In this document: positions 26,442 to 63,933 of the stretch, one piece after another
Layout of the letters: every line of letters starts with the position of its first letter
How positions within the stretch are numbered: position 1 is the first letter of the stretch
Assembly (NCBI RefSeq): GCF_030864005.1
Contig: NZ_CP132976.1
Location: forward strand, 2,480,001-2,544,000
Origin: Achromobacter seleniivolatilans
GTDB lineage: Bacteria > Pseudomonadota > Gammaproteobacteria > Burkholderiales > Burkholderiaceae_B
Direction of reading: 5' to 3'
Length of the DNA stretch: 64,000 nucleotides
Position numbers and translations under genes: made by a program
Notes under the pieces: model-generated
Databases searched by the model: none
Told to the model about the DNA's origin: nothing
The model's input: the letters and a program-made list of their open reading frames with translations, nothing else

Positions 26442-26482
26442 AAACAAAATACTCCGACATTGGCATAGTAGAATCGCGCGCT

Positions 26483-28312: not shown

Positions 28313-28329
28313 TGCATAAGGAGTCCACG

Positions 28330-28584: not shown

Positions 28585-29129
28585 AGCGCGGCGTTACGGC
28601 CAGCCTGGCCGTCGCCGGCGTCGCCTACCCCTTCGTCGTGCATGCGACGTTGGGACATGTCAGTCCCGCATGGCTGGCGCTGCCACTGGCCGCACTATGG
28701 CTGGCCCGCGGGCTGACCGCGCGCGGCGCCCAGGCAGGCGGCCGCTTGCTGCCAGCCGTGGCCGTTATCTTCTGCCTGATCCTGGCCGTATCGAATTCGG
28801 AGGCCTGGCTGCGCTGGTATCCCGTGCTGGTCAACGCCATGATGCTCGTCATTTTCGGCGCCAGCTTGCGGGTCGGCCGTCCGGTGATTGAACAACTGGC
28901 AAGACTGCGTCACCCCAACCTGCCGCCAGAAGGCATACGCTACACGCGTAATGTGACGCGCGCGTGGTGCCTCTTTTTCGCCCTGAACGGCGCCATCGCA
29001 GCTGCCTTGGCCGCCTGGGCGCCCTGGAGCTGGTGGCTGGCCTATAACGGCGCAGTCAGTTATGCACTGATGGGCTTGTTGATGGCCGGTGAATGGCTGC
29101 TCCGCCCTGCCGCGGCCAAAGCGGCATGA
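28581..29129 (+). CDS. APE cluster membrane protein (COG4648-like)
   Basis: This 182-residue integral membrane protein has about five hydrophobic segments, near residues 5-25, 30-45, 52-70, 75-92 and 130-165. The central loop has ARLRHPNLPPEGIRYTRNVTRAW, matching the COG4648 family found in nearly all APE clusters. The mechanism is unknown; a scaffold for the polyene-synthesising enzymes or a transport partner is possible. It overlaps both neighbours. Confidence 0.82.
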   Translation: MKRGVTASLAVAGVAYPFVVHATLGHVSPAWLALPLAALWLARGLTARGAQAGGRLLPAVAVIFCLILAVSNSEAWLRWYPVLVNAMMLVIFGASLRVGRPVIEQLARLRHPNLPPEGIRYTRNVTRAWCLFFALNGAIAAALAAWAPWSWWLAYNGAVSYALMGLLMAGEWLLRPAAAKAA

Positions 29130-30823: not shown

Positions 30824-31562
30824 GCTCTGCGCCGTCATCCCGGTCTATAACCATGGCGGCACCGTGGCGGCCGTGCATGCGCAACTGGCGGCCCAAGGTT
30901 TTCCTTGCGTGCTGGTGGACGACGGCTCCAACGCGGACTGCGCGACGGCCCTGGATGCACTTTCCACGCTGCCCGACACCCATCTGGTCCGCCGGCGCAT
31001 CAACGGCGGCAAGGGCGCAGCCGTGCAGGATGGTCTGCGCGCTGCGGCGGCGCTGGGTTTCACGCACGCACTGCAAGTCGATGCTGACGGCCAGCATGCG
31101 CTGCCCGACGCCGTGGCCTTTGCCAACGCATCGCGCGAGCAACCGCAGGCGGTCATTTGCGGCGCTCCCGTCTATGGCGACGACGTTCCGCGCAGCCGCC
31201 TGTATGGACGTTGGCTGACGCGCGTCTGGGTCTGGATCAATACGCTGTCGCTTGATATCCCAGACGCCATGTGCGGTTTTCGCGTCTATCCGCTGGCGCA
31301 TGTGCTGCCGGTAATCAACCGAGCCCACGTCGGCCGCCGTATGGATTTCGACATCGCCATTCTGGTGCGCCTGCATTGGCGCGGGGTGGCGATGGCTTGG
31401 CTGCCCACTCGCGTGGTGTATCCGGAAGGCGGCATTTCGCACTTCAAGGGCCTGCAAGACAACCTGCTGATCAGCCGTATGCATGCGCGGCTGTTCTTCG
31501 GCATGCTGGGCCGGTCACCCGCCCTGCTCTGGCGCCGTCTGGCACGAGGTCTGCGCTCATGA
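30810..31562 (+). CDS. Glycosyltransferase family 2 protein
   Basis: This 250-residue GT-A fold enzyme has CAVIPVYNHGGTVAAV, the VDDGS nucleotide-sugar motif and the DxD-like VDADGQH. There is no long N-terminal membrane segment. It likely adds a sugar or polyprenyl-like unit to make the lipid anchor of the aryl polyene. The start at 30810 overlaps the ligase by 14 bases; the upstream ATG is inside that gene. It is co-directional with an acyltransferase that starts within its last four bases. Confidence 0.87.
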   Translation: MPEYRLCAVIPVYNHGGTVAAVHAQLAAQGFPCVLVDDGSNADCATALDALSTLPDTHLVRRRINGGKGAAVQDGLRAAAALGFTHALQVDADGQHALPDAVAFANASREQPQAVICGAPVYGDDVPRSRLYGRWLTRVWVWINTLSLDIPDAMCGFRVYPLAHVLPVINRAHVGRRMDFDIAILVRLHWRGVAMAWLPTRVVYPEGGISHFKGLQDNLLISRMHARLFFGMLGRSPALLWRRLARGLRS

Positions 31563-32482
31563 CCGCTGCCGATCCCCATTGGGCCGACCAGCCCGAACGT
31601 GGCAGCCCCGCGCTTATGCGCGCCACGGCTTGGGCCGCGCGCACGCTGGGACGGCGCATTGTGGCGCCGGTTGTGTGGCTAGTGGTCCTGTACTTCTATG
31701 TCTTCGGCGGGCGGGCCCGTCGCTCGATCGCACGCTACCAGCAGCGCCTGGTGCAATCCGGCGAACTGGCCATGCCCTTGCCGCGCACCCTGCCCGTCTA
31801 CCGGCAGTACCTGGCATTCGCCGAGGCCATGCTGGACAAGCTGGACGTGTGGCAAGGCAAGATCACCATGTCTGATCTGGACATGAATGATCCCGATGGC
31901 CTGCACGATCAAATGGGCACAGGCCGAGGCCAGATACTGGTGGGCTCGCATCTGGGCAATATCGAAGTCTGCCGGGCGCTGGCCGAACGCTCCGGCACCC
32001 TGCGCTTGAATGTGCTGGTTCACAGCAAGCACGCCGTGCATTTCAACCGCCTGCTCGATCAGGCGGGCGGCGGGTTGCGGATGATTCAGGTCAGCGAATT
32101 GGATGCGCCCATGATGCTGGATCTGGCGCAGCGGCTGGATCGCGGCGAATGGCTGGCCATCGCCGGTGATCGTGTGCCGCTTCAGGGCGACCGCACAACC
32201 CCAGTGAACTTTCTAGACGCCAGCGCGGAACTGCCGCAGGGCCCCTGGCTGTTGGCCGGCCTGCTGCGCTGTCCGGTAAATGTTTTGTTCTGCACCCGCC
32301 ACGGCGCGCGCTACCGCGTATCGATGGAGCGCCTGACCGACGACATTGAATGGACGCGCGCCACCCGCCAGGCGCGTATCGCCCACTGGGCGCAACGCTA
32401 TGCCGACCGTCTTGCGGCGCACTGCCGGCTGACGCCGTTGCAATGGTTCAACTTCTACCCTTTCTGGAAAGACGATGCGTAA
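31559..32482 (+). CDS. LpxL/HtrB-family acyltransferase
   Basis: This 307-residue protein has an N-terminal membrane helix (about residues 33-50) and the lysophospholipid acyltransferase motif GSHLGNIEVCRAL with the H-x4-E pair. The start at 31559 overlaps the glycosyltransferase stop. In APE clusters a second acyltransferase of this type adds a fatty chain to the sugar-containing anchor. The enzyme resembles late lipid A acyltransferases but is found in the pigment operon and not with lpx genes. Confidence 0.87.
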   Translation: MTAADPHWADQPERGSPALMRATAWAARTLGRRIVAPVVWLVVLYFYVFGGRARRSIARYQQRLVQSGELAMPLPRTLPVYRQYLAFAEAMLDKLDVWQGKITMSDLDMNDPDGLHDQMGTGRGQILVGSHLGNIEVCRALAERSGTLRLNVLVHSKHAVHFNRLLDQAGGGLRMIQVSELDAPMMLDLAQRLDRGEWLAIAGDRVPLQGDRTTPVNFLDASAELPQGPWLLAGLLRCPVNVLFCTRHGARYRVSMERLTDDIEWTRATRQARIAHWAQRYADRLAAHCRLTPLQWFNFYPFWKDDA

Positions 32483-32918
32483 ACGAGGCGTCATCGGCGC
32501 TGAAGTCGAAATCCGCGTGCCCTTCTTCGACGTCGACTCGATCAACGTCGTCTGGCACGGACACTACGTCAAATATCTGGAACAGGCGCGCTGCGAGCTG
32601 CTGGATCAGTTGGGTCACAACTACGATGCCATGCGCGTCAGCGGCTATGTGTGGCCGGTGATCGACCTGCATCTGCGCTACGCGCAGCCCGCGCAATTCG
32701 GCCAACGGCTGACCGTGCGCGCCGAACTGGTGGAGTGGGAACACCGCCTGAAGATCAACTACCTGATTCTGGATGCAGCAAGCGGTCAACGGTTGACGCG
32801 AGCCACGTCCGAGCAGGTGGCCGTCTGCATCGAAACCCGTGAAATGCAGCTGGCATCGCCCGCCGCCTTCGTCAACGCCGTACAGCGCAAGCTGCAATCG
32901 CTGGAGAGTCCGGTATGA
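32475..32918 (+). CDS. 4-hydroxybenzoyl-CoA-type thioesterase
   Basis: This 147-residue hotdog protein has the 4HBT motif PFFDVDSINVVWHGHYVKYLEQAR, with the conserved Asp near residue 19 and the VVWHGHYVKY helix. It would cut CoA or ACP thioesters in the polyene pathway, either proofreading stalled intermediates or releasing product. It starts eight bases inside the acyltransferase gene and its stop overlaps the LolA-like start. Confidence 0.9.
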   Translation: MRKRGVIGAEVEIRVPFFDVDSINVVWHGHYVKYLEQARCELLDQLGHNYDAMRVSGYVWPVIDLHLRYAQPAQFGQRLTVRAELVEWEHRLKINYLILDAASGQRLTRATSEQVAVCIETREMQLASPAAFVNAVQRKLQSLESPV

Positions 32919-33544
32919 AGCCGCTATACATGGGAACGCATCTTTTCATCCGCCGTCTGCTCATGATGGCAGCGCTGGCCATATTGCCCTTGACCGCGCG
33001 CGCCTTCGATCTGAATGATCTGCAAACCCAGTTGCGCGCAACGCCCGTCGTACGCGGGCAGTTTGTGCAGCAGAAATTCCTGCGCTCGCTGCCACAGCCC
33101 CTGACCAGCCGGGGCGACTTCACACTGGCGTCAGGCCAGGGCCTGCTCTGGTTGTTGCGCACGCCTATCAAGCAAGACCTGCGTATCAACGCAAAAGGAA
33201 TCTCGCGCCGCGACGAAACTGGCGCTTGGCAAAGCCTGCCGCAGCAGACCGGCTCGGGCCGTGAAAACCGCTTGTTCCTATCGGTGCTGGCTGGCGACAC
33301 CACGGGCTTGCAAGAGAACTTTGACCTGGCGCTCACAGGCGAAGCCAACGCCTGGCAATTGCTGCTGACCCCCAAGTCGGTGCTGCTGCGCCAGATTTTC
33401 GACAACATCCAGATCAACGGCGGCAAGCTCGTGGACCGCATCGAACTGCGCGAAACGCAGGGCGACCGCAGCGTTCTGCAAATGACCGATGCTGTTGCCG
33501 CCGACGCGTTAAGCCCCGAGGAACAACGTGCGTTTTCAGACTGA
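32915..33544 (+). CDS. LolA-like outer-membrane carrier protein
   Basis: This 209-residue protein has a signal peptide (FIRRLLMMAALAILPLTARA, cleavage near residue 30) and a LolA-fold body with VVRGQFVQQKFLRSLPQPL. Such proteins carry hydrophobic ligands across the periplasm. Here it would receive the polyene lipid from the MMPL pump. The start at 32915 overlaps the thioesterase stop (ATGA), and the 3' end overlaps the exporter gene by 17 bases. Confidence 0.85.
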   Translation: MKPLYMGTHLFIRRLLMMAALAILPLTARAFDLNDLQTQLRATPVVRGQFVQQKFLRSLPQPLTSRGDFTLASGQGLLWLLRTPIKQDLRINAKGISRRDETGAWQSLPQQTGSGRENRLFLSVLAGDTTGLQENFDLALTGEANAWQLLLTPKSVLLRQIFDNIQINGGKLVDRIELRETQGDRSVLQMTDAVAADALSPEEQRAFSD

Positions 33545-35858
33545 ACGCTGGCTGCCCCGGCTCTTCAAACTGGGCTTGGCGCTGGTGCTATGCGCCGGCG
33601 CCTGGCAATGCCGCAACGGGTGGCCCGTATCGGCCAATCTGATGGAACTGGTGCCGCAGGCTGCGGCGGACGCCACGCGCCAATTGGCCGAAGCCAGAAT
33701 TCAAGAGCCGCTGTCCCGGCAACTGATCGCGCTGGTCGCGGCGCCTGCCGGCGCGGATTCCGCCGCGCCAGCCCGGCTGCTGGCGGAACGTTGGACCCGC
33801 AGCGGGCTGTTCTCTTCGGTTCAGGTGGAATTGAATGTGGACGTCGCCGCGCTGCGCGCGCAATTGTTGGCGGGACGTCTGGCTATGCTGCCCGCCGCCG
33901 ACCGCGAGCAACTGGCATCGGACCCTGCCACCTACGCGCAACGGCGTGCTCGTGAACTGTCGGACCCCTTTTCGTCTTCGGGCCTTTTGCCCGTGGATCA
34001 GGATTGGCTGGGCCTGACGCGCCGCGCCGAACAAGCGTTGCGGCCGGGCGGCGCCGTGCAATATGACATGGGCACCGGAACGTTGCAGGCCGAGCATGGC
34101 GGCAAGCGTTGGGTGCTCGTGCGCGCCGAAACGCGTTCCGACGCTTTCGACACCGGCTCTCCCCAAGGCATTGCGCAGCAAATCGATCAAGACCGACTGG
34201 CACTCAACGCCTCTGGCGCAGAATTGCTGGTAGCCGGTGGCCCGCTGTATGCCGCAGCGGGGCGCGCTCAGGCCGTAGCGGAAAGCAGCTGGATCGGCTC
34301 GGGCGCAATGATCGGCATCATCCTGGTGCTGCTGCTGACTCTGCGGCGCGTCCGCGCACTGCTGGCCTTCGTGCCGGTCGCCGTCGGCCTGCTGACCGGC
34401 GCAGTGGCCTGCGTAGCCGTATTCGGGTCCATCCACGTGCTGACGCTCGTCATCGGCGCCAGCCTGATTGGCGTGGCGGTGGACTTCCCCATGCACTGGC
34501 TCGGAAAAAGCTACGGCATGCCCGACTGGCAAGCCTGGCCCGCTCTGCGCCGGGTCTTGCCCGGCCTGACGATCAGCCTGGCAGCCAGTCTGGTCGGCTA
34601 CATCGCACTGGCCTTCACACCATTCCCCGCTTTGACGCAAACCGCCGTGTTTTCGGCCGCCGGGTTGCTGGGCGCCTATGCCTGCACCGTTTGCCAGCTT
34701 CCCGCCTGGATGAGCAACGGTTGGCAGCCGCGCCCTTGGCCGCCGCTGCTGCGGTTTGCGCAGGCAGCCCTGCTTGCACGCGAACGCCTGGCGGCCCGGC
34801 GCGCCGTGCTTGGATTGGGCGCCTTGATACTGGGCGCAGCGACGGTGGCAGGCATCAGCCGGCTCGTCATTCAAGATGATTTGCGCCAATGGCTCAGCCT
34901 GCCCGCTCCGTTATTGCAGCAAGCCCGTCAAATCGGCGAGATTACCGGCTTCATGCCCACCAGCCAGTTCTTCCTGGTGCGCGCGCCCGACACTGATGAA
35001 CTCCTGCGCCGTCAGGCTCTGGTCGCCCAAAAGCTCGACCCCCTGGTCAAACGCGGCGACCTGGCTGCCTACAACTCGCTTAGCCAGTTGGTTTCGCCCG
35101 CGGCGGACCAGCGGGCGCTAGGCCAGCGTCTGGCGGCGCTTGCCGAGCAGCCAGACGTCTGGAAACCCATCACCGATCTAGGCATCCCCTTCGATGCGCT
35201 ACGTGTAGAGCTTCAAGCCATGGCCACGCTACCCGTCGTCACCATCGACGGCGCGCTGCAAGGGCCCCAAGCCGAACGCTGGCGGACGCAATGGCTGGGC
35301 GTGCACAACGGCGAGGCAGCCGGCATGATCACGCTCCTGGGCTTGCGCAACACAGCGGTGCTGGAAGGCATTGCCCAAGGACTACCGGGCGTGGATCTGG
35401 TGGACCGCAGCGGCGAGCTGAATCGGATGTTTGCCGCTACCCGCATCGAGGCGGCCGAACTCAAGCTGCTTTCCTACGCCGTAGCAGCCGCGTTGCTCCT
35501 TCTGACCCTGGGACGCGCCGCCACATGGCGCATCCTGGCCGTGCCGCTGGCCGCTACGGCCTGCGCGCTGGCCGCGCTGGGTTTCCTGGGGCAGCCGCTC
35601 ACCCTGTTCAGCCTGTTCGGGCTATTGCTGGTGTCCGCTATCGGTGTGGATTACGCCATCTTCATGTACGAGCGCGTCGCCGGCGCGGCGGCCAGCTTGG
35701 TCGGCATCCTGCTGGGTGCCGCCACCACGCTGCTGTCGTTCGGACTTCTGGCCATCAGTCACACCCCTGCCATCGCCAATTTTGGCTTGGCGGTCGCATT
35801 GGGCGTGGGCTTTTCGCTGTTGTGGGCTCCCTGGCTCCGTCCGCCTGTGGCGGCCTGA
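33528..35858 (+). CDS. MMPL/RND-family exporter of the APE cluster
   Basis: This 776-residue pump has the two-fold RND-like layout. One helix starts each half, a large periplasmic domain follows (about residues 30-235 and 440-640), then clusters of five helices (about 245-400 and 645-770). Helix 4-like segments carry acidic and Gly residues (IGVAVDFPMHWLGKSYG and VSAIGVDYAIFMYER), as in proton-driven MMPL proteins. It would move the polyene lipid out of the inner membrane together with the LolA-like carrier. Confidence 0.9.
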   Translation: MRFQTERWLPRLFKLGLALVLCAGAWQCRNGWPVSANLMELVPQAAADATRQLAEARIQEPLSRQLIALVAAPAGADSAAPARLLAERWTRSGLFSSVQVELNVDVAALRAQLLAGRLAMLPAADREQLASDPATYAQRRARELSDPFSSSGLLPVDQDWLGLTRRAEQALRPGGAVQYDMGTGTLQAEHGGKRWVLVRAETRSDAFDTGSPQGIAQQIDQDRLALNASGAELLVAGGPLYAAAGRAQAVAESSWIGSGAMIGIILVLLLTLRRVRALLAFVPVAVGLLTGAVACVAVFGSIHVLTLVIGASLIGVAVDFPMHWLGKSYGMPDWQAWPALRRVLPGLTISLAASLVGYIALAFTPFPALTQTAVFSAAGLLGAYACTVCQLPAWMSNGWQPRPWPPLLRFAQAALLARERLAARRAVLGLGALILGAATVAGISRLVIQDDLRQWLSLPAPLLQQARQIGEITGFMPTSQFFLVRAPDTDELLRRQALVAQKLDPLVKRGDLAAYNSLSQLVSPAADQRALGQRLAALAEQPDVWKPITDLGIPFDALRVELQAMATLPVVTIDGALQGPQAERWRTQWLGVHNGEAAGMITLLGLRNTAVLEGIAQGLPGVDLVDRSGELNRMFAATRIEAAELKLLSYAVAAALLLLTLGRAATWRILAVPLAATACALAALGFLGQPLTLFSLFGLLLVSAIGVDYAIFMYERVAGAAASLVGILLGAATTLLSFGLLAISHTPAIANFGLAVALGVGFSLLWAPWLRPPVAA

Positions 35859-35898
35859 CAGGACCTTTTTTCAATCATCCAACAAGGAAACATCCAGC

Positions 35899-37146
35899 AT
35901 GGAACATCGGGAAGTCGTCGTCATTGGTGCGGGCCCCTCCGGCGCGGTTGCGGCGGCCCTGCTCAAGAGGCAAGGGCATGATGTGCTGATGCTGGAGCGC
36001 CAGCAATTTCCCAGGTTTTCCATCGGTGAAAGCCTGCTGGCGCACTGCCTGGAATTCGTGGAAGAAGCCGGCATGATGCCCGCCGTGCAAGCAGCGGGCT
36101 TCCAAGTCAAGAATGGCGCCGCCTTCGCGCGGGGCGATGAATACGCGTATTTCGACTTCCGCGACAAATTCACGCCCGGCCCCGGCACCACGTTCCAAGT
36201 GCAACGCGCCCATTTCGACAAGGTGCTGGCCGACGACGCCGAACGCCAAGGCGTTGAAGTGCGCTACTTGCAGGAAGTCACCGCTGCCAACTTCGAGGGC
36301 GACAGCCCACTACTGGACGTGCGCGGCGCCGACGGCAGCACCTACCAAGTGCAAAGCCAATTTGTGCTGGATGCCAGCGGCTATGGCCGCGTGCTGGCGC
36401 GTTTGCTGGATCTGGAGCGTCCGTCGTCGATGCCGCCCCGCAAAGCCATCTTTACCCATATCGAAGACCGCATCGATGACGCCGGTTTTGACCGCGAGAA
36501 GATTCTGATCAGCGTGCATCCGGAACAACCCGGCATCTGGTACTGGCTGATCCCGTTCTCCAACGGCCGTTGCTCATTCGGTGTCGTCGGCGGGCAAGAC
36601 CTGTTCGGCGGGCCTGATCAGGATTTGATGGCGACGTTGCGGGCCATGGCCGACGCCGCGCCCAATCTGAAGCGCGTGCTGAAGAATGCAGTGTGGGACA
36701 CCCCCGCCAACACCATCGGCGGGTATTCGGCTAGCGTCACCCGCCTGTATGGCCCCGGCTACGCGCTGTTGGGCAACGCCGCCGAATTTCTGGACCCCGT
36801 ATTCTCGTCCGGCGTCACCATCGCCCTGCGCTCGTCCAAGCTGGCCACCGACGCCTTGCATCGCCAACTGAGCGGCGAACCGGTCGACTGGCAAACGGAT
36901 TTCGCCGATCCGCTGATGCTAGGCGTAGAAACTTTCCGCGCCTACGTGCAAGGCTGGTACAGCGGAGAATTCCAAGATGTGGTGTTCTACCAGAACGCCC
37001 AACCAGAGATCCGGCGCATGATCAGTTCCATCCTGGCGGGTTACGCCTGGGACACCAGCAATCCGTTTGTCGCCAACCCGCAGCGCCGCCTGCGCATGCT
37101 GAGCGAATTGTGCCGCGGCGTTCAAACGCAAGCCGAACCTGCCTGA
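35899..37146 (+). CDS. FAD-dependent halogenase-like oxidoreductase
   Basis: This 415-residue flavoprotein starts with VVVIGAGPSGAVAAALLKR (GxGxxG) and has ERQQFPRFSIGESLL. W214-Y-W216-L-I218-P219 is an exact WxWxIP motif, and Lys71 in GFQVKNGAAF is where the catalytic lysine of CmlS/CndH-type flavin halogenases sits. The late GNAAEFLDPVFSSGV is the FAD-binding region. It lies inside the APE operon, between exporter and lipoprotein genes, with a 40-base gap holding an AAGGAAA ribosome site. Halogenation of the aryl head is possible; a plain dehydrogenase or reductase role is the alternative. Confidence 0.82.
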   Translation: MEHREVVVIGAGPSGAVAAALLKRQGHDVLMLERQQFPRFSIGESLLAHCLEFVEEAGMMPAVQAAGFQVKNGAAFARGDEYAYFDFRDKFTPGPGTTFQVQRAHFDKVLADDAERQGVEVRYLQEVTAANFEGDSPLLDVRGADGSTYQVQSQFVLDASGYGRVLARLLDLERPSSMPPRKAIFTHIEDRIDDAGFDREKILISVHPEQPGIWYWLIPFSNGRCSFGVVGGQDLFGGPDQDLMATLRAMADAAPNLKRVLKNAVWDTPANTIGGYSASVTRLYGPGYALLGNAAEFLDPVFSSGVTIALRSSKLATDALHRQLSGEPVDWQTDFADPLMLGVETFRAYVQGWYSGEFQDVVFYQNAQPEIRRMISSILAGYAWDTSNPFVANPQRRLRMLSELCRGVQTQAEPA

Positions 37147-37151
37147 TTGCC

Positions 37152-37706
37152 ATGATGTCCGCTTCCCTGCCCTTTCTGTCCGCGTGCCGCGCCACGGCCG
37201 CCGCACTGACGCTTGCCCTGTTGGCTGGGTGCGCTGGCGCGCCCCCAGTGCCCGCTCGCGATGCCCGCTTTACGGTGCCGCGCCAGTTGCACGTGGTGCA
37301 GTCGGCGGCAGGCCAACCGCAGCAGGACACGCTGCTGGTCGTGCAACGCGAAGGCGCGGCCCTGCGCTGGTCATTGTTTGACCCGATGGGCGTGCCGCAA
37401 GCGCGGCAGATGCTGGAACACGGGCAATGGCGCAATGACGGCTTCCTGCGTCCCAACGGACAGGCGCGCAACCTGTTCGCCGCGCTCATTTTTGCGTGGA
37501 CGCCCGAACAGGATCTGGATGCCGCATACGGTGCGGGCGCTTGGCGCAGCCGCGCCATCGGCGCAGGCGCCGAACGCACCTTGCAGGACCGCGGCGCAGC
37601 ACGTTGGACTGTGCGCTGGACGCAGGCGTCGCAGCCAGACGTCTTTTCCATTACCAATACCGATGGCGTCACGTGGCAGATCGAACCGCTGAGGGAACAA
37701 CCATGA
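37152..37706 (+). CDS. DUF3261 lipoprotein of the APE cluster
   Basis: This 184-residue protein has a hydrophobic leader and a clear LLAGC lipobox with Cys about residue 27. The body contains TVPRQLHVVQSAAGQPQQDTLL and a WSLFDPMGVPQARQML stretch typical of DUF3261 proteins found with APE genes. Outer-membrane anchoring and insertion of the polyene lipid is the inferred role, similar to LolB. The start at 37152 is six bases past the oxidoreductase stop; the 3' end overlaps the KS gene. Confidence 0.85.
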   Translation: MMSASLPFLSACRATAAALTLALLAGCAGAPPVPARDARFTVPRQLHVVQSAAGQPQQDTLLVVQREGAALRWSLFDPMGVPQARQMLEHGQWRNDGFLRPNGQARNLFAALIFAWTPEQDLDAAYGAGAWRSRAIGAGAERTLQDRGAARWTVRWTQASQPDVFSITNTDGVTWQIEPLREQP

Positions 37707-38902
37707 TCAGTTGGCTGGGCACGCCCGGTATCGTCTGCGCGCTTGGCGCCGGGACCGATGCCGCCGCTCGGGCCGCCTTTGCCGGCGACACAGGCGGCAT
37801 GCGCGCGCAGACGGGCTGGGTTGACGGCCGCGCTTTGACGCTGGGCAGCTATGCGGGCGAGCTGCCGCCCATTGGCGATGACCTGCCCGCGCACCATCAC
37901 AGCCGCAACAACCAATTGCTGCTGGCCTGCGCGGCGCAGATCGAAAATCAAATTCAACGCGCCATTGCCCGCCATGGCCCTCACCGCATCGCCGTGGTCC
38001 TTGGCACCAGCACGTCCGGCGTGAACGACAACGCCCCCGCCTTCCGCCAGCTCGCAGCCCAAGGCGCTTGGCCGGACGGTTACGACTACCGGCGCCAGGT
38101 TCTGTCTTCGCCTGCATCATTCCTGGCTGACTACCTGCGCGTAACCGGTCCTGCTTATACGCTGTCGACCGCCTGCACCTCCAGCGCGCGCGCGCTGCTG
38201 TCGGCGCGCAGACTGCTCGCATCAGGCCTGTGCGACGCCGTGATCTGCGGCGGCGCGGACACCCTATGCCGCCTGACCATCAATGGTTTTGCCACATTGG
38301 AAGCCGTGGACGATACGCGCTGTCTGCCATTTTCGGTCAACCGCCGCGGCATCAATATCGGCGAGGCCGGCGTGCTGTTCCTGATGGAACGCGAGGCCGC
38401 TGACGCGCAGGCGGTGGCGCTGTTGGGCGGTGGCGCCAGCTCCGACGCATGGCATATGTCAGCGCCGGAGCCCACTGGCGCTGGCGCGCGTCAGGCCATG
38501 CTGGCCGCCTTGGCCTCTGCGGATGTGGACGCAGCAGCCATCGGCTGGGTCAATCTGCACGGTACCGGCACGCAGCACAACGATGCGATGGAAAGCCTGG
38601 CCATGGATGCCGTATTTCCGCAAGGCGTGCCGTGCGCGTCCACCAAGGCGCTGACCGGCCACACGCTGGGCGCTGCGGGCGCAATGGAAGCCGCGCTGGC
38701 GTGGATCACGCTGTCCGAAAGCAATGCCGGCGGACACTTGCCTCCCCACGTTTGGGACGGCCAGCCAGACCCCGCTCTGCCCGCTCTGGACTTCAGCGCA
38801 GCCGGGCACCGCTACGCGCAGGGCCGGCCGCGCATTGCCATGAGCAACTCCTTCGCCTTCGGCGGCAACAACGCCAGCCTGATCCTGGGAACCCCACGAT
38901 GA
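37703..38902 (+). CDS. Beta-ketoacyl-ACP synthase (first APE KS)
   Basis: This 399-residue KS has the catalytic Cys in STACTSSARALL (about residue 155) and two histidines, in NLHGTGTQHND and ALTGHTLGAAG. All three active-site residues are therefore present, unlike the CLF at 26483. It would extend the polyene chain by condensing malonyl-ACP units. The start at 37703 overlaps the lipoprotein stop. Confidence 0.92.
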   Translation: MISWLGTPGIVCALGAGTDAAARAAFAGDTGGMRAQTGWVDGRALTLGSYAGELPPIGDDLPAHHHSRNNQLLLACAAQIENQIQRAIARHGPHRIAVVLGTSTSGVNDNAPAFRQLAAQGAWPDGYDYRRQVLSSPASFLADYLRVTGPAYTLSTACTSSARALLSARRLLASGLCDAVICGGADTLCRLTINGFATLEAVDDTRCLPFSVNRRGINIGEAGVLFLMEREAADAQAVALLGGGASSDAWHMSAPEPTGAGARQAMLAALASADVDAAAIGWVNLHGTGTQHNDAMESLAMDAVFPQGVPCASTKALTGHTLGAAGAMEAALAWITLSESNAGGHLPPHVWDGQPDPALPALDFSAAGHRYAQGRPRIAMSNSFAFGGNNASLILGTPR

Positions 38903-39360
38903 ATGCCTGCCCCTGGCCCATTTCCAGCCTGTTGCCGCACGCCGGCAACATGATTCTGATCGACGAAGTCTGCGGTTATGACGCTGACAGCCTTACCGCC
39001 CGCGCCGTAGTCCGGCCAGGCCCCTATTCGCTGCCCGACGATACGCTGCCGCCCTGGCTGGGCATGGAATTCATGGCACAAGCCGTCGGCGCTTGGGCGG
39101 GCTGCCATGCGCGCTTGGGCGGCGAAGAGGTCAAGCTGGGCTTCCTTCTGGGTACGCGCCGGTATGAATGCCACGCCGATACGCTACCCGTCGGAACCGT
39201 ACTGACTATCCGTGTTGAACGCGGCTTGATCGACGCCAGCGGCATGAGCGTCTTCGAATGCGAATTGCGCGACGCGACACGTCTGCTTGCACAGGCCAGG
39301 CTGAACGTCTATCAGCCCAAGGACCCTACCGCTTTTATCCAGGAAGAATCCCCTCAATGA
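38899..39360 (+). CDS. APE hotdog dehydratase (ApeP-like)
   Basis: This 153-residue single-hotdog protein has LLPHAGNMILIDEV with the catalytic His and PPWLGMEFMAQAVGAWAG with the second acidic position. The family dehydrates beta-hydroxyacyl-ACP during polyene growth. It overlaps the KS stop by four bases and the KR start by four bases. It is separate from the dehydratase domain fused to the ligase, so the cluster encodes two dehydratase modules. Confidence 0.9.
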   Translation: MNACPWPISSLLPHAGNMILIDEVCGYDADSLTARAVVRPGPYSLPDDTLPPWLGMEFMAQAVGAWAGCHARLGGEEVKLGFLLGTRRYECHADTLPVGTVLTIRVERGLIDASGMSVFECELRDATRLLAQARLNVYQPKDPTAFIQEESPQ

Positions 39361-40088
39361 GCGCTGCCCCCATCCTCGTAACCGGCTCAAGCCGCGGCAT
39401 CGGCCGCGCCATTGCGCTGGCCCTGGCCGATGCAGGCCACGACCTGGTGCTGCACTGCCGCCAGCAACGCGAACAAGCCGAATCGGTGCAAGCCGAGATC
39501 CAGGCCCTGGGCCGTCAGGCCCGCATTCTGCAATTCGACGTGGCAGATCGTGCACAATGCGCCGCAACGCTGCAAGCGGACATCGACGCACATGGCGCCT
39601 ATTACGGCGTGGTGCTGAATGCTGGCTTGACCCGTGACGGCGCTTTCCCCGCGCTGACGGGCGACGACTGGGATCAAGTCCTGCGTACCAATCTAGACGG
39701 CTTCTACAACGTGCTCAGCCCGCTGGCCATGCCCATGATCCGCCGCCGCGCAGCGGGCCGCGTGGTCTGCATGGCATCGGTCTCGGGCCTGGTGGGCAAT
39801 CGCGGTCAGGTCAACTACAGCGCGTCCAAAGCTGGCTTGATTGGCGCCGCCAAGGCGCTGGCCGTGGAACTCGCCAAACGCCACATCACCGTGAACTGCG
39901 TGGCGCCGGGCCTGATCGATACCGACATGATCGATGAGCATGTGCCCGTCGAAGAAATTCTGAAAGCGGTGCCAGCCCAACGTATGGGCCGACCGGAAGA
40001 GGTAGCCGCCACGGTGGTGTTCCTGATGTCGCCGGGCGCCGCCTATATCACGCGGCAGGTGATCGCTGTCAACGGAGGACTGTGCTGA
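39357..40088 (+). CDS. 3-oxoacyl-ACP reductase (SDR, FabG-like)
   Basis: This 243-residue short-chain dehydrogenase has VTGSSRGIGRAIAL for NADPH binding, VLNAGLTRDG, and the catalytic triad in MASVSG followed by YSASKAG. It reduces beta-ketoacyl-ACP after each condensation. The start at 39357 overlaps the dehydratase stop, and its own stop shares bases with the next ATG (TGATG). Neighbours place it in the polyene pathway, not in general fatty acid synthesis. Confidence 0.93.
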   Translation: MSAAPILVTGSSRGIGRAIALALADAGHDLVLHCRQQREQAESVQAEIQALGRQARILQFDVADRAQCAATLQADIDAHGAYYGVVLNAGLTRDGAFPALTGDDWDQVLRTNLDGFYNVLSPLAMPMIRRRAAGRVVCMASVSGLVGNRGQVNYSASKAGLIGAAKALAVELAKRHITVNCVAPGLIDTDMIDEHVPVEEILKAVPAQRMGRPEEVAATVVFLMSPGAAYITRQVIAVNGGLC

Positions 40089-41314
40089 TGAACCGCGTTG
40101 TCATTACCGGCATGGCCGGCATCAGTGCCCTGGGGTCCGATTGGGCCAGCGTCCAGCAGGCATTTCAATCAGGGCAAAGCGCCATCCGCTACATGCCGGA
40201 CTGGTCGCGCTACCCCGAACTGAACACACGCCTGGCCGGCCCCGTGGCTGATTTCAAGGTGCCAGCTCACTGGACCCGCAAGCAGCTACGCAGCATGGGG
40301 CGTGTATCGCAGTTGTCGGTGCGCGCAGCAGAACTGGCGCTGACAGACGCCGGGTTGTTGGGGGACGCCAGCATTACCGACGGACGCATGGGCGTGGCCT
40401 GCGGATCGTCAGTTGGCAGTACCGCGGAAATCCGGGCATTCGGCAACATGCTGCTCAATGGCGTGACGGAAGACCTCAACGCCAACTCCTACGTCCGCAT
40501 GATGCCGCACACGACAGCAGCCAACGTCGGCATCTTCTTTGAACTGAAGGGCCGCATCATTCCGACCTCCAGCGCCTGCACCTCGGGAAGCCAAGGCATA
40601 GGCTACGCCTACGAGGCGATCCGTTATGGCCGTCAGGCCATGATGCTGGCCGGCGGTTCGGAAGAATTGTGCGCCAGCGAAGCGCTGGTGTTCGATGCGC
40701 TCTACGCCACCAGCCAGCAAAACGACACACCGGAACTTACGCCACGGCCTTATGACCGCGACCGCGATGGGCTGGTAATTGGCGAAGGCGGCGGCATGCT
40801 GGTGCTGGAGTCCCTGGACCATGCAGTGGCCCGAGGCGCGCGCATCCACGCAGAAATCGTGGGCTTCGGCAGCAACTCGGATGGCACCCACATCACCCGC
40901 CCGGAAGCCACCACGATGCGCATCGCGATGGAAATGGCACTGACCGACGCATCCCTGCCGCCCGAGGCCATCGGCTACGTCAATGGCCATGGCACGGCGA
41001 CGGAACAGGGCGACATCGCTGAAACACAGGCAACGCATAGCCTGTTCGGCAGCCGCATGCCTATCAGCTCACAAAAGAGCTACCTGGGCCACACGCTGGG
41101 CGCCTGCGGCGTACTGGAATCGTGGTTCAGCATCGAAATGCTCAACCGCGATTGGTACGCCCCCACGCTCAACCTGCGCAATGTCGATCCGCGCTGCGGC
41201 GAATTGGATTACCTGCAAGGCGACGGACGGCGCATGAGCAATGAGTACGTCATGAACAACAATTTCGCCTTTGGCGGAATTAACACGTCCCTTATTTTTC
41301 GCCGCTGGCCCTGA
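40088..41314 (+). CDS. Beta-ketoacyl-ACP synthase (second APE KS, FabF-like)
   Basis: This 408-residue KS has the nucleophile in SSACTSGSQGIGYAYEA and histidines in VNGHGTATEQGD and SYLGHTLGACG. ATG at 40088 is preferred to the GTG at 40082 because it forms a TGATG overlap with the reductase stop. This is the last gene of the cluster; the strand continues with an unrelated secreted protein after 53 bases. One KS likely starts the chain and the other extends it; which does which is not readable from sequence. Confidence 0.92.
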   Translation: MNRVVITGMAGISALGSDWASVQQAFQSGQSAIRYMPDWSRYPELNTRLAGPVADFKVPAHWTRKQLRSMGRVSQLSVRAAELALTDAGLLGDASITDGRMGVACGSSVGSTAEIRAFGNMLLNGVTEDLNANSYVRMMPHTTAANVGIFFELKGRIIPTSSACTSGSQGIGYAYEAIRYGRQAMMLAGGSEELCASEALVFDALYATSQQNDTPELTPRPYDRDRDGLVIGEGGGMLVLESLDHAVARGARIHAEIVGFGSNSDGTHITRPEATTMRIAMEMALTDASLPPEAIGYVNGHGTATEQGDIAETQATHSLFGSRMPISSQKSYLGHTLGACGVLESWFSIEMLNRDWYAPTLNLRNVDPRCGELDYLQGDGRRMSNEYVMNNNFAFGGINTSLIFRRWP

Positions 41315-41367
41315 CCCGGAATCGGGCGGCCAGCGCTTTGCAATCTTTCATCCTTGGAACGCACGTC

Positions 41368-41808
41368 ATGAAGATCACCTACAAGCTGTTCGGAGCGCTT
41401 TCCCTGTCGCTCGCTTGCTCGGCGCAAGCGCTGGCCGCGGATCGCACCGTGTTTTTGCCCCTGCAACCGGCTATCGACGCCGCGCTGGCTGCGGGCAAGA
41501 TCGACGGCAGCGTGAAGTTCTACCTCGCCGGCACGGGTCCCAAGGGCCAGGTGCTGGAAGAAGGCGTGGTGACCAACCGCAAGACCAACGCGTTCGCCAA
41601 GAAAGATGAAGACGCTTGCCTGTGGGTGGCCCAGTCCGCCGTAATCTCGCTGCACGAAGCCGCCAAGAAAGCGAACGCGAATGCCGTGACCAACATCGTC
41701 AGCTACTATCGCAAGAACGTTTCCACCAGCAAGACCGACTACGAATGCCATGCTGGCGCCACGGTCGCTGGCGTTGCCCTGCGCGGCGATCTGGCCCGGG
41801 TGAAGTAA
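41368..41808 (+). CDS. Secreted protein of the misnamed 'excinuclease' small family
   Basis: This 146-residue protein has a signal peptide (MKITYKLFGALSLSLACSA, cleavage near ALA-ADR). The mature part has FLPLQPAIDAAL, VKFYLAGTG, TNAFAKKDEDACLW and a late YECHAGATVAGVALRGDL. It resembles small proteobacterial proteins that databases often label excinuclease ATPase subunit; it has no Walker motif and cannot be UvrA. Two conserved cysteines (in DACLW and YECHAG) may form a disulfide. The function is unknown. It follows the APE operon on the same strand and could be read through from it. Confidence 0.78.
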   Translation: MKITYKLFGALSLSLACSAQALAADRTVFLPLQPAIDAALAAGKIDGSVKFYLAGTGPKGQVLEEGVVTNRKTNAFAKKDEDACLWVAQSAVISLHEAAKKANANAVTNIVSYYRKNVSTSKTDYECHAGATVAGVALRGDLARVK

Positions 41809-41872
41809 ACGCCATACCGGTCAGCCCGGTTTACACTTCCTGTTTGCCGCAACACCACACAAAGGTTTACCC

Positions 41873-59078: not shown

Positions 59079-60062
59079 CTAAGCGCGCGCCACCACCCCA
59101 TCTGCTGGCTGCTCGCGTTCCGCATAACGGCGCGCCAACACCGCGCAGACCATCAGCTGCATCTGGTGAAAGATCATCAGCGGCAGCACCACAATCCCCA
59201 TCTGCGACGTGCCGAACAGCACCGTCGCCAGCGGAATCCCGGATGCCAGCGACTTCTTCGACCCGCAGAAAACCAGCGTAATCTCGTTTTCCTTGCTCAG
59301 TCCAAGCTTGCGGCTGCCCCAGGTTGTAATCAGCAGCACCGATCCCAGCAGCAGTGCATTCACCAGCACCATCGTGGCCAGATCGATCGCCGGAAAGGCA
59401 TGCCAGATGCCTTGCGCCACCGCTTCGCTGAACGCGGTATAGACCGCCAGCAAGATCGAGCTTCGATCCACTTTGGACAGGGTGCGATTATTGCGTTGCG
59501 CCCAAGCGCCAATCCACGGCCGCAACAGGCTGCCCACCGCAAACGGCAACAACAGCTGGAGCAGGATGCGGCCGGCATCCGCCAGGCCATGCCCGCCGCC
59601 CTGACGATGCAGCAGCACCGCCACCAACAGCGGCGTCAACACGGTGCCCAGCAGATTGGACGCCGTTGCCGCGCATATCGCCCCCGGCACGTTGCCACGC
59701 GCCATCGACGTAAATGCAATGGACGACTGCACGGTGGATGACAGCGTGCAAACGAACAGCACGCCCAACCACAACGACGGCGTCAGCAGGCCGGGGAACA
59801 AGGCACGCAGCCCCAGGCCCAGAGCGGGAAATAGCAAAAAGGTGCAGGCCAGAATCAGGCCATGCAGCCGTACGTCCTTCACCCCTGCCACGATGGCGTC
59901 GGTGGACAAGCGCGCGCCGTGCAGGAAAAACAGCAACGAAATAGCCACATTACTGGCCACCAACATGAACGACGCCCCCTTGCCAACGGCAGGAAAAAAG
60001 CTGGCGAAGACCACCGTGGCGATAAGGATGAGCGTGAATTGGTCGGGCAGGAAGCGGCGCAT
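59079..60062 (-). CDS. SBF-like (bile acid:sodium symporter family) transporter
   Basis: This 327-residue membrane protein has about ten helices. The features LLFFLHGARLSTDAIVAG, TLSSTVQSSIAFTSMA and CGSKKSLASGIPLA define the YfeH/PF13593 subgroup of the sodium symporter superfamily. It converges with the Rieske gene (two-base gap) and is divergent from a LysR gene. The substrate is unknown. Confidence 0.9.
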   Translation of the reverse strand: MRRFLPDQFTLILIATVVFASFFPAVGKGASFMLVASNVAISLLFFLHGARLSTDAIVAGVKDVRLHGLILACTFLLFPALGLGLRALFPGLLTPSLWLGVLFVCTLSSTVQSSIAFTSMARGNVPGAICAATASNLLGTVLTPLLVAVLLHRQGGGHGLADAGRILLQLLLPFAVGSLLRPWIGAWAQRNNRTLSKVDRSSILLAVYTAFSEAVAQGIWHAFPAIDLATMVLVNALLLGSVLLITTWGSRKLGLSKENEITLVFCGSKKSLASGIPLATVLFGTSQMGIVVLPLMIFHQMQLMVCAVLARRYAEREQPADGVVARA

Positions 60063-60175: not shown

Positions 60176-61018
60176 ATGCTCAATCCTTTGTGGCTCAAGA
60201 CCTTTGCCGCCGCCGCCGCCGCGCCCAGCTTCACAGAGACCGCCCGGCGGCTGGGCCTGACCCAGCCCACCGTCAGCGAACATATCCGCCAACTGGAGCA
60301 GGCGATGAACCGGCGCCTGTTTTTGCGCGACACGCATTCGCTTACGCTGACCAGCGACGGCCGCAGCTTGCTGGTGCATGCGGAACTGATCCTGGATGCT
60401 CACGAACGTGCCGAACGTCTGTTCGACGCCCCCCGGCTGCGCGGCCGAGTCCGCCTGGGCACGTCCGACGACCTTGCGATGGGTCCCTTGCCCGACGTGC
60501 TGGCCGCGTTCCGGCTGGCCCATCCCGAAGTGGAACTGGACCTGACCATCGGTGTTACCAGCGAACTCTATAAGTTGCTGGACGACAACGGGTTGGATGT
60601 CATGATCGGTAAACGGCGGCGCGGTGACCGCCGCGGCCAGACGCTCCACAAAGAAGCGCTGTTATGGCGCGCCAAAGAAGGGCTGCGGTTTGCACCCGAC
60701 GAGCCCTTGCCGCTGATCTTGCTGCGTGAACCCAGCGTGACGCGCACCTTGACGCTGGATGCGTTGGCGCGTGCGGGCCGCAGTTGGCAGATTGTCTGCA
60801 CCAGCACCAGCTACGCGGGTTGCCAGGCGGCGGCCCGCGCGGGCCTGGGCATTGCGGTGCAACCGTCACACCTGTCCACGGCAGGGCTGGCGGCGCCCCC
60901 TGCCGCTACCCAGCTGCCCGCGCTGCCGCAGGTGGAGTTCATCGTCATCTCGGCCCCCGCGCCCAACAAGCCGACCCGCGCGCTGACCGAGATTTTGATG
61001 CGCAGCACGCTGACTTGA
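60176..61018 (+). CDS. LysR-family transcriptional regulator, divergent from SBF gene
   Basis: This 280-residue protein has an N-terminal HTH (WLKTFAAAAAAPSFTETARRLGL, then TQPTVSEHIRQLEQ) and a C-terminal binding domain starting RVRLGTSDDLAMGPLPDVL. It probably controls the divergent transporter 113 bases away. It is the last credible gene before the abnormal stretch. Confidence 0.9.
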   Translation: MLNPLWLKTFAAAAAAPSFTETARRLGLTQPTVSEHIRQLEQAMNRRLFLRDTHSLTLTSDGRSLLVHAELILDAHERAERLFDAPRLRGRVRLGTSDDLAMGPLPDVLAAFRLAHPEVELDLTIGVTSELYKLLDDNGLDVMIGKRRRGDRRGQTLHKEALLWRAKEGLRFAPDEPLPLILLREPSVTRTLTLDALARAGRSWQIVCTSTSYAGCQAAARAGLGIAVQPSHLSTAGLAAPPAATQLPALPQVEFIVISAPAPNKPTRALTEILMRSTLT

Positions 61019-61048: not shown

Positions 61049-61132
61049 TTACTGCGGCGCCGGACGCGTGTGTTTGACGGCGCCTTCCAGCGCTTGCGGT
61101 TGCTTCAACAGATTCAGGATCGGGCACCACTG
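61049..61132 (-). pseudogene. Broken 3' end of an unidentified gene
   Basis: On the minus strand, a coding-like tail of about 28 codons reads LFQWCPILNLLKQPQALEG and then AVKHTRPAPQ before a TAA at 61049-61051. It has normal GC-rich composition and then stops being coding-like exactly where the sequence turns abnormal. The rest of the gene is missing or replaced. I do not recognise the family. Confidence 0.4.
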
Positions 61133-62140
61133 AAATAGGTGGGGGAGGGAATGTGAGTTGTGTTTGGACAGGGGGGGGGGGGGGGGGGGGGACCCACACA
61201 ACGGGTGTTAGTGTGTGAAACAACACCACACCGCTTTCAGTGCCACCGCGCAGCAACCTTCCTCCTGACTCGGCTGATGAGTATCGTTATAGAGGGGGAG
61301 ATGAGTGGTGGCGGATTATTACGGAAACGAATAGGAAACACGGTGGAAACAGAGGTACTGTTAAAACTGCGTTATAAATTCTAGAGTAGAATGTATGGGG
61401 AAAGATAGGAAGCATTGATCTGATGTTGTGAGTATAGTATTATGAATAGATTAAATAACTATGTTATGTGTTATAGGAAATGTATGTTAAGATTTTATAT
61501 GAAGGAATGACGATGTAAAAATGTGGTTACAAGTGTAGTTGTAGAAGATAGAAATGAGGAAGTAGGGAAGATAGGAAGAATGAGGGTAAGGGATTATGTG
61601 ATGGATATTCGAAGGGAGATAAGAATAGATTAGGAGATGATGGAAATGGTGTGGATTATTTGTTAGATGGTGGTTGTAATAGGTTGGGTTTTGTGTAGTA
61701 GGAAGAGATGAGAGGAGAGTAGAGAAAAGATGAAGGATAAGATATGGGAAAAGTTAATTGAATGATTTGAGAGAAATTTAATAGGAAGGGTGGTTGTAGC
61801 TTAAGAAAGAAAGTAACGAAGTAGGGATAGGCGATAGTCCATGAAGGGGAGGAAAAGGACATTGAGGAGAGAGAGATTAATAATAGAGGTTAATACTTGA
61901 TTGGAACCCCGGCCATTATTAAGGAGAGTAAAATGAGAATGAGCATAGGAGTAACAGGACAAGACCAAATGCAGACAAAGAATTACACTTACAACTCACC
62001 CTGAGCGAATAGAGGATTGGAATCAGTCAGAATGCAGGATCTGAGTTCATATGGCGAGAAACGGAGAAGTGCCACGAATAATAGAGGAAGGACAACCGAT
62101 TACAAGTACAATTACGCGGCGAACAAAGTAAAGGCTTACC
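61133..62140. other. Abnormal stretch: poly-G, then C-depleted AT-rich sequence (probable assembly artefact)
   Basis: The first bases are G/T-rich and include 21 G in a row (61171-61191). Composition then slides from genome-like to AT- and purine-rich. C almost disappears: 8 C in 420 bases at 61381-61800, with 189 C-free bases at 61611-61799. From about 61850 it returns stepwise to normal GC by about 62130. There is no ribosome site, coding bias or gene. The gradual loss and recovery of composition on both sides of a join fits low-quality consensus sequence, not transferred DNA. Confidence 0.7.
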
Positions 62141-63148
62141 CTAGTCGATAACGGGCGCGGGCGTAGGCGGCATGCCCGTGCCACCGCTAGCGCCATAGGC
62201 TTGCAGACGCAAATAGTCCAGCACCTGCCAGACCTCTTCCGGGCGCAACACCGCATTGAATTCATGTATCGCCCTCCCGGCCATTGATGGCTCGTTCTGC
62301 GCCACGCGCCAATACAGTTCGCCTTCCAGCCGGTTGTCGAACAAGGCTGCGCCCAATACGCTGGGCCACACAGGCAACGTTACCGCCCGCACGCCCCGGC
62401 CGTCGGCCGCGATGCCGTGACAACTGGCGCAATGCACCTGATACAACCGCCCGCCCTGCAACACGTTGGCATCCGAAAACGCCAGGGGCGACCGTTGATA
62501 AGACGTGCCGTGCGCTTCTGTCAGCAGCATCTGCGGACGCGGCCATGTTGCGCTCAACGCCAACACCGCCGCCGCTGCGAGCCACAGATATCGCCAACGC
62601 CTGGCAAACAAGGCGATCACCAACAGAGCCAGCGCCGCGCCGCTTTGCGCCAAGGCCAGCCACAAGCGGTGCCACGTGTGCGGGCTGACAGGCAGATCCG
62701 CGTCATAGCGCCAGGCAAACGGCCAGTTGGCCACCGCCAACGCATCACTCGGCAAACGCCAGATTGCCGTAGCCAAAATGATGATCAGCAGCGCCAGGGC
62801 GCCCATCGCTACCGCCACGCCACGCCGCCAAGAAAACTGCGCGGCGGCAGCTACCCCACCCGCGCGGCTGTGCAGCCAGGCAGCAGTCAGGCCGGCCAGC
62901 AGCAAGATGGCAATGACCGCCAACGCCAGATGCCCAACGCGCGAGCCCAGCAAACCCGGCGCGCCCTGCACCGTTCGCCAAGCGAGGCTGAACAACACAG
63001 CGGACACCGCCCAGGCCCCCGCCGCCAGCCAGGGCAAACGCAACACGACGGGCCCGCTCGTCCGGACCCGTCCCGCCACGCCCGCCCACGCCAGCATGGC
63101 GATGCCCGCCACGATCGCGGCCAGCGCCAACCCCTCCCGGCTCACCAC
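62141..63148 (-). CDS. Membrane-anchored cytochrome c domain protein
   Basis: This 335-residue protein has about six helices in residues 5-202 and then a cytochrome c class I domain (about 225-318) with CASCH at 240-244 and a likely axial Met289 in EPSMAG. The domain would face the periplasm and pass electrons. It overlaps the upstream ATPase gene by seven bases, so it is part of a transporter operon. The final residues lie next to the abnormal stretch, and the true stop could be affected by it. Confidence 0.85.
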   Translation of the reverse strand: MVSREGLALAAIVAGIAMLAWAGVAGRVRTSGPVVLRLPWLAAGAWAVSAVLFSLAWRTVQGAPGLLGSRVGHLALAVIAILLLAGLTAAWLHSRAGGVAAAAQFSWRRGVAVAMGALALLIIILATAIWRLPSDALAVANWPFAWRYDADLPVSPHTWHRLWLALAQSGAALALLVIALFARRWRYLWLAAAAVLALSATWPRPQMLLTEAHGTSYQRSPLAFSDANVLQGGRLYQVHCASCHGIAADGRGVRAVTLPVWPSVLGAALFDNRLEGELYWRVAQNEPSMAGRAIHEFNAVLRPEEVWQVLDYLRLQAYGASGGTGMPPTPAPVID

Positions 63149-63933
63149 GTTGCATCCAACCCCAACAACGCCAGCGCCCGATGCCGCAGCTCCGCCAGGC
63201 GCGGATCTCCGCGGTGCCGCGGATACGGCAGGTCATTGACGATCTCATCTTTGATTCGCGCGGGCCGCTCACTTAACACGACAATCCGCGACGCCATGAA
63301 CAAGGCTTCTTCCACATCGTGCGTCACGAGCAACGCCGTGAACCCCGTCCGCTGCCACAGCTCCACCAGCTCGGACTGCATGGCAATGCGCGTAAGCGAG
63401 TCCAGCTTGCCCAAGGGTTCGTCCAGGATCAGGATGCGCGGGTCATTGACCAGCGCGCGCGCCAGCGCCGCGCGTTGTGCCATGCCGCCAGACAACTGAT
63501 GCGGATACGCCTGACTGAAGCCTGCCAGCCCCACGCGCTGCAAAGCGTCGTCCACGCGGTGGCGTTCGGTCTTCAGCAGGCCACGCGCCTGCAAACCCAG
63601 GGCAACGTTGTTCCACACGGTGCGCCAGGGATACAGCGTAGGGTCCTGGAACACCACGATGCGCGATGGCGATGGCCCCTGAATCGGCGCGCCATCCGCC
63701 AGCAGATTGCCTTCGGCAGGCGGTTCCAGACCCGCCACCAGCCGCAGCAAAGTGGACTTGCCGCAACCGCTGGGCCCCAGCAGCGCCACGAATTCGCCAG
63801 GTTTGACGTCCAGATCAATACTGTCCAGCACCGGCAAAGCCGCGCCGTCCAGATCAAAGTGATGATTCACACCGTGTACGGCCAGCGCTGCGCCTCGCGA
63901 GACGGCCGATTCCTGCAATGCCGCCGCTACCAT
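63142..63933 (-). CDS. NitT/TauT-type ABC transporter ATP-binding protein (second system)
   Basis: This 263-residue ATPase has GPSGCGKST, VVFQDPTLYPWRTVW, LSGGMAQRAALARAL, ILILDEPLGKLD and VTHDVEEA. The group transports sulfonates, nitrate or similar anions. Its start overlaps the permease stop, and its end overlaps the cytochrome gene. An extra 20-residue N-terminal stretch precedes the usual domain start. Confidence 0.93.
   Translation of the reverse strand: MVAAALQESAVSRGAALAVHGVNHHFDLDGAALPVLDSIDLDVKPGEFVALLGPSGCGKSTLLRLVAGLEPPAEGNLLADGAPIQGPSPSRIVVFQDPTLYPWRTVWNNVALGLQARGLLKTERHRVDDALQRVGLAGFSQAYPHQLSGGMAQRAALARALVNDPRILILDEPLGKLDSLTRIAMQSELVELWQRTGFTALLVTHDVEEALFMASRIVVLSERPARIKDEIVNDLPYPRHRGDPRLAELRHRALALLGLDATW

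What the first reader, a model, noticed from the sequence alone, without database searches (positions are those of the whole stretch)
61133..62140. A 1-kb abnormal stretch with 420 bases nearly free of C interrupts the window
The flanks are about 65 percent GC. Inside, GC falls steadily and C all but disappears on the plus strand: 8 C in 61381-61800, none in 61611-61799, while G stays common. Composition changes gradually on both sides instead of at sharp edges. This fits failed base calls or a bad consensus at a contig join. A real insertion of such DNA would be very unusual in this genome. Gene order across 61 to 62.1 kb should not be trusted, including any link between the LysR/SBF genes and the cytochrome/ABC operon.
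Basis: partly seen in the sequence, partly recalled or inferred. Interest (0 to 1): 0.75.

Follow-up and report, generated by a model that had tools for sequence, protein, structure and literature searches.

The report
Garbage bases filling an assembly gap
About one thousand bases of this bacterial chromosome look like meaningless letters that overwrite the end of one gene and most of another, so the stretch is very probably an assembly error, while the order of the neighbouring genes looks sound.

Summary
In detail: 8 C in 61381-61800, none in 61611-61799. The 21-G run at 61171 is the only run of 14 or more G or C in the 6.86-Mb genome. Named protein relatives are Achromobacter.

61133-62143 (1011 bp) takes the place of about 930 bp of conserved DNA: 150 codons of an OsmC-family gene, a short spacer and about the last 140 codons of the cytochrome c gene. 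Homology stops at one base on the left and within about ten on the right, although composition drifts gradually. No convincing trace of the expected sequence remains. The stretch is in 0 of 42 other congeners. Of 397 other genomes of the phylum, 2 gave only matches of about 30 bases. Plasmids, phages and E. coli gave nothing. Its letters are nearly uncorrelated.

Most likely a gap of about 0.93 kb was bridged with worthless base calls (0.85, inferred; no reads could be inspected). The warning about gene order is not upheld: 19 of 36 congeners carry both flanks in the same order. Interest is low, except as a database warning: the truncated cytochrome is already in a protein collection.

The parts
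61133..62143 (.). abnormal stretch (1011 bp: A 359, C 101, G 316, T 235) in place of about 930 bp of conserved DNA
61171..61191 (+). run of 21 G, the only run of 14 or more G or C in the genome
61611..61799 (+). 189 bases without C
61049..61132 (-). surviving 3' end of an OsmC-family gene (27 codons and stop); the other 150 codons are missing
   Evidence: PF02566 on the G017 orthologue
62141..63148 (-). cytochrome c gene, truncated to 335 codons; its stop codon is the first codon inside the stretch; nearest relative P0002 has 473 residues
60176..61018 (+). LysR-family regulator gene, intact, left flank
59079..60062 (-). SBF-like transporter gene (PF13593), further left
63142..63933 (-). ABC transporter ATPase gene, right flank

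Best explanation
Assembly artefact. At this locus the chromosome most likely carries ordinary Achromobacter DNA (the rest of an OsmC-family gene, a short spacer and the end of the cytochrome c gene, about 930 bp). That would explain four things together: homology ends abruptly because contig ends are exact; the length is nearly right (1011 against about 929 bases in G017) because a failed read still counts bases at roughly the right rate; the letters are nearly uncorrelated; and composition drifts with the signal. Shown: the replacement, its edges, the missing gene parts, the lack of relatives in what was searched, the texture. Inferred: that the cause is sequencing and assembly rather than biology. 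The instrument or tool is a guess.
For: Conserved gene parts are missing with abrupt edges inside conserved gene order. OsmC was not found elsewhere in the genome, while the same query finds the orthologue at 91-100% identity in 18 of 40 other congeners. The stretch is in 0 of 42 other congeners, with no match in plasmids, phages or E. coli genomes at E 0.1. In 397 other phylum genomes there were only 2 matches, 30 and 32 bases long. No stop-free frame over 88 codons inside. Adjacent letters nearly independent: z 0.5-0.9 without the first 100 bases, against 0 of 150 own-genome segments below 1.0, median 8.9. The only G or C run of 14 or more in the genome is here. The length is within 9% of the missing segment of G017.
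Against: No reads were seen. The texture test is not conclusive: 5 of 98 segments of AT-rich phage T4 were at or below 0.6, and the stretch has a mild excess of repeated 6-, 8- and 10-letter words (z 2.1-2.4 without the first 100 bases). Abrupt edges also fit a real recombination event. Strong C depletion occurs naturally once more in the sampled 1.66 Mb, in a conserved gene. Some alignment tests against congener segments gave scores above shuffles. The rest of the contig shows no second such block in the 24% sampled.
Confidence: 0.85

Rival explanations
1. Real replacement: a recent recombination or end-joining event removed about 930 bp and put in about 1 kb of foreign, AT-rich, strand-skewed DNA of unknown origin. 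OsmC and the cytochrome end would really be lost in this strain.
For: Abrupt edges. A Ku gene is present. An OsmC orthologue is not found in 22 of 40 other congeners, so its loss seems tolerable, and this junction varies in the genus. 5 of 98 T4 segments have equally weak letter correlation.
Against: No relative in congeners, 397 other phylum genomes, plasmids, phages or E. coli. No stop-free frame over 88 codons. 189 bases without C while G stays at 36% fits no donor genome that I know of (recalled).
Confidence: 0.09
2. Gradual decay or strand-biased hypermutation (loss of C) of the original OsmC and cytochrome DNA.
For: A real gradient of C loss exists in an IclR-like gene of the same genome. 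Global alignments gave scores above local shuffles for some congener segments, and the best pair-HMM gain (0.08, G017) exceeds all 20 rotations. The surviving OsmC tail differs from G017 in 5 codons by amino acid and 4 silently.
Against: A gain of 0.08 is negligible: simulated segments keeping 30% of letters gave 8.1-14.1, and 20% gave 1.2-5.1. The tail next to the edge keeps its first 13 residues identical to all 14 congeners compared, which slow decay of the neighbouring base would not leave.
Confidence: 0.02
3. Deliberate construct: a laboratory deletion-replacement or stuffer placed in the strain.
For: The left edge falls on a codon boundary of OsmC, and the first codon of the stretch ends the cytochrome frame with a stop.
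Against: Both are unremarkable by chance (about 1 in 3 and 1 in 20, my estimate). No plasmid match, and none of eleven adapter or primer oligos exceeded shuffles (smallest fraction 0.12). No selectable gene.
Confidence: 0.02

Closest known systems
Erroneous gap closure with uncorrected long reads
   Same: Two correct flanks joined by a filler of about the right length that cannot be trusted. Passages of PMC7476103 state that gap-closing tools cause more assembly errors than de novo contigs.
   Different: Raw long reads normally keep most true letters; here less than about a fifth are retained. Whether any tool was used on this genome is unknown.
Natural C-poor, G-rich gene in the same genome (IclR-like, L062:6570-7364)
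   Same: C falls gradually along the strand: codon-third C from 18% in the first quarter to 0% in the last.
   Different: It keeps its frame and 84-94% protein identity to 11 congeners, one of them a partial match. G rises to 57%, whereas the window stretch is A- and T-rich.
Template-free DNA made by Abi-type and DRT1 reverse transcriptases
   Same: Random or semirandom letters with biased composition (passages of PMC9508834; PMC13275509).
   Different: No chromosomal capture of such DNA appeared in the passages I saw. No PF00078 reverse transcriptase was found in this genome.

Membership tests
Assembly artefact (bad gap fill) | Conserved sequence missing exactly where the stretch sits | tested here: met
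Assembly artefact (bad gap fill) | No relative in other genomes | tested here: met
   0 of 42 congeners; 2 of 397 phylum genomes with 30- and 32-base matches only; none
Assembly artefact (bad gap fill) | Letters without the correlations of natural DNA | tested here: inconclusive
   Below all 150 own-genome segments, but 5 of 98 T4 segments are as low
Assembly artefact (bad gap fill) | Drop in read depth or quality at the edges | not testable with these tools
   No reads available
Miscalled but true sequence (bad consensus) | Recognisable remnant of the expected sequence | tested here: not met
   Pair-HMM gain at most 0.08 against 8.1-14.1 for 30% retained letters; about 10% retention not excluded; mixed alignment scores
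Mobile element or foreign insert | Coding capacity or similarity to phages, plasmids or other genomes | tested here: not met
Captured template-free DNA | A template-free polymerase in the genome | tested here: inconclusive
   No PF00078 match; Abi-type enzymes may escape this model; Ku present

The most novel reading that the evidence does not exclude
The stretch is real and was made without a template: about 1 kb of random-sequence DNA, with nucleotide supply changing during synthesis (C running out and returning), was ligated into a chromosomal break by Ku-dependent end joining with loss of about 930 bp.
Probability: 0.02. Interest if true: 0.85.

Novelty: not a real feature. Interest (0 to 1): 0.15.

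Why it matters
If it is an artefact, as seems likely, a deposited chromosome contains about 1 kb of invented letters that delete most of an OsmC-family gene and shorten a cytochrome c. The shortened 335-residue protein is already in a protein collection, and comparisons of gene loss or gene length would inherit the error. The case also suggests a way to spot such filler: abrupt loss of homology inside conserved gene order, together with nearly uncorrelated letters of drifting composition. If it were real, it would be a very unusual case of large template-free or otherwise unexplained DNA in a chromosome.

Tried and rejected
Plain miscalling of the true sequence: alignment and pair-HMM tests against congener segments. 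The mixed alignment scores are told in the full report; the pair-HMM, which allows for local composition, found at most a negligible gain.

Strand-biased loss of C from the original DNA: disfavoured and by the intact OsmC tail beside the edge.

Mobile element, phage or plasmid insert: no matches, no long frames. Sequencing adapters and primers: eleven tested, none above shuffles. Hairpin read: self-complementarity below the shuffle mean.

OsmC moved elsewhere in the genome: not found (the query works). Another isolate of the same species with intact genes: the nearest full-length cytochrome is 76% identical (where only the 7,998 candidates sharing most words were scored). None of the five OsmC-family proteins that I read (P0178, P0179, P0181, P0182, P0191; 120 listed of 1,080 found) ends in the window's tail. 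So no independent isolate was found; members hidden in 90% clusters were not seen.

Other contigs by back-translation: one unrelated locus. Papers: listings for Achromobacter genomes and for the contig length did not identify the source. Searches were seen as listings with starts of abstracts; passages only were seen of PMC9508834, PMC7476103 and PMC13275509. A frameshift check of the rest of the window against G017 gave ambiguous overlapping-frame hits and is not used.

Full report
WHAT IS THERE. The window lies at 2,480,001-2,544,000 of a 6.68-Mb contig. Its close named protein relatives are Achromobacter. Between a LysR gene (60176-61018, +) and a cytochrome c gene (62141-63148, -) lies a stretch whose composition departs from everything around it. 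Over 1011 bases (61133-62143) it holds A 359, C 101, G 316, T 235. It includes 189 bases without C and a run of 21 G; that run is the only run of 14 or more G, on either strand, in the whole genome. In 1.66 Mb of the same genome (the window plus 80 sampled stretches) the only other strongly C-poor place is a gene, treated below.

WHAT IT REPLACES. Searching 36 congeners with the region, 35 matched the left flank and 19 matched both flanks in the same order and orientation within 3 kb. I fetched 20 of these loci, the 19 and one with the left flank only. In 15 of the 20 the left match ends at the same base, 61132; in the other five it ends earlier. In the 19 with both flanks the DNA between is ordinary high-GC sequence: 13 measure 932-976 bp, three without OsmC 429-547 bp, and the rest 1056, 1131 and 2102 bp. 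It encodes an OsmC-family protein (PF02566) on the minus strand and the end of the cytochrome. In the window the last 27 codons of OsmC survive (61049-61132). The first 13 residues of that tail are identical in all 14 congeners compared; against G017 the 27 codons show 4 silent and 5 amino-acid differences. Upstream of the tail homology stops. On the right, the cytochrome runs alongside its nearest relative P0002 (473 aa) through PAPVID (relative: PAPVVD), and the next codon, inside the stretch, is a stop. So 150 codons of OsmC, the spacer and about 140 codons of cytochrome are missing. In G017 the missing part is about 929 bp against 1011 here (the 936-bp gap less 7 aligned bases). OsmC was not found elsewhere in this genome; the same query finds the orthologue at 91-100% identity in 18 of 40 other congeners, and not in 22.

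IS IT RELATED TO ITS EXPECTED CONTENT? Probably not. Local alignment with four congener segments is at the level of shuffles on both strands. Global alignment is mixed. Against shuffles of the stretch, G017 scored above all 60, a second congener equalled the highest and a third was ordinary. Against 400 unrelated window segments none of 13 stood out; 255 to 400 of the 400 scored as high or higher, though that control is not matched for composition. With block shuffles, five of 13 congeners scored above 98-100% of shuffles and 90-100% of rotations; the other eight did not stand out in both controls. A pair-HMM that allows for local composition gave a gain of 0.08 for G017 and below zero for six others. 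The 0.08 exceeds all 20 rotations (-2.08 to -0.28) but is negligible: in four simulations each, segments keeping 30% of letters gave 8.1-14.1, 20% gave 1.2-5.1 and 10% gave 0-3.2. I conclude that less than about a fifth of the true letters is retained; a trace of 10% or less is not excluded.

IS IT RELATED TO ANYTHING ELSE? 0 of 42 other congeners. 2 of 397 other phylum genomes gave matches of 30 and 32 bases at E about 5e-4, which I take as chance. Nothing in plasmids, phages or E. coli genomes at E 0.1. No stop-free frame over 88 codons inside it. None of eleven adapter or primer oligos scored above shuffles, and there is no self-complementarity.

TEXTURE. Without the first 100 bases, which hold the G run, adjacent letters are close to independent given the drifting composition: mutual-information z 0.66, 0.5 to 0.9 on repetition. 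With those bases it is 1.53. Of 150 random 908-base segments of the same genome none fell below 1.0 (median 8.9), and 14 low-GC segments gave 1.9 to 11.2. Of 98 segments of AT-rich phage T4, 5 were at or below 0.6, so the test supports random letters but does not prove them. Repeated words of 6 to 10 letters are mildly in excess (z 2.1-2.4). Doubled letters are somewhat rare (z about -2.3), as when neighbouring equal peaks merge; the own-genome median is -1.1, so this is weak.

READING. Gradual composition with abrupt homology edges, a length within 9% of what is missing, near-random texture and no relatives fit filler letters placed between two correct contig ends. The cause could be a failed segment of an uncorrected long read or a failed finishing read; I cannot tell which. 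A gap-closing paper states the error risk of such steps (passages of PMC7476103). The truncated cytochrome (P0001) is in a public protein collection on a contig of the same length, with two member sequences on one contig, so at least this edge was deposited, but I found no independent support for it.

RIVALS. A real foreign replacement cannot be excluded without reads: Ku is present, OsmC is often absent in the genus, and the junction varies. Gradual decay or hypermutation fits poorly with one-base edges beside a recognisable tail. Capture of template-free DNA is the boldest reading. Abi polymerases make random sequence (passages of PMC9508834) and DRT1 semirandom, A-rich DNA (passages of PMC13275509), but no PF00078 reverse transcriptase was found here, and nothing in the passages I saw links such DNA to chromosomal capture.

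A NATURAL C-POOR GENE. Sampling showed one other strongly C-poor place, an IclR-like gene (named by eye, not run against Pfam) whose codon-third C falls from 18% in its first quarter to 0% in its last. The gradient is shared by 11 congeners, one a partial match, and is weaker in the three most distant. It shows that C loss can be natural in this genus, but there frame and homology are kept.

GENE ORDER. The caution about gene order is not upheld: both flanks are collinear in 19 of 36 congeners, and the window is collinear with G017 up to 61132 (85% identity) and from 62151 (79%).

VERDICT. Observation confirmed, interpretation partly supported, most likely not a real feature. Until reads are checked, OsmC loss and the short cytochrome in this genome should not be taken as biology.

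Noticed in passing
L062:6570-7364 (G000 contig 1, about 886,570-887,364, + strand): An IclR-like regulator gene (named by eye) whose C content falls steadily towards its 3' end (codon-third C 18% to 0%, G 45% to 79%), shared by 11 congeners at 84-94% protein identity, one a partial match, weaker in the three most distant. A conserved gradient of C loss within a gene is unexplained and may deserve its own study.
   Followed up: partly
window 25700-41825: About 16 kb present here and absent from G017, where the flanks lie about 40 bases apart. It carries ketosynthase, ApeI-like dehydratase/AMP-binding and phosphopantetheinyl transferase genes and looks like an aryl polyene type cluster (resemblance recalled).
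   Followed up: partly
L029:1-180 (G018 contig 583, first bases): A congener's draft contig begins with 122 C followed nearby by a sequence like the Nextera mosaic end (recalled), a probable sequencing artefact left at a contig end.
   Followed up: no
L024 (G014), between the same two flanks: One congener has about 1.1 kb more here, with an open frame of 290 codons that resembles an SRAP/YedK-type protein (recalled); the junction is variable in the genus.
   Followed up: no
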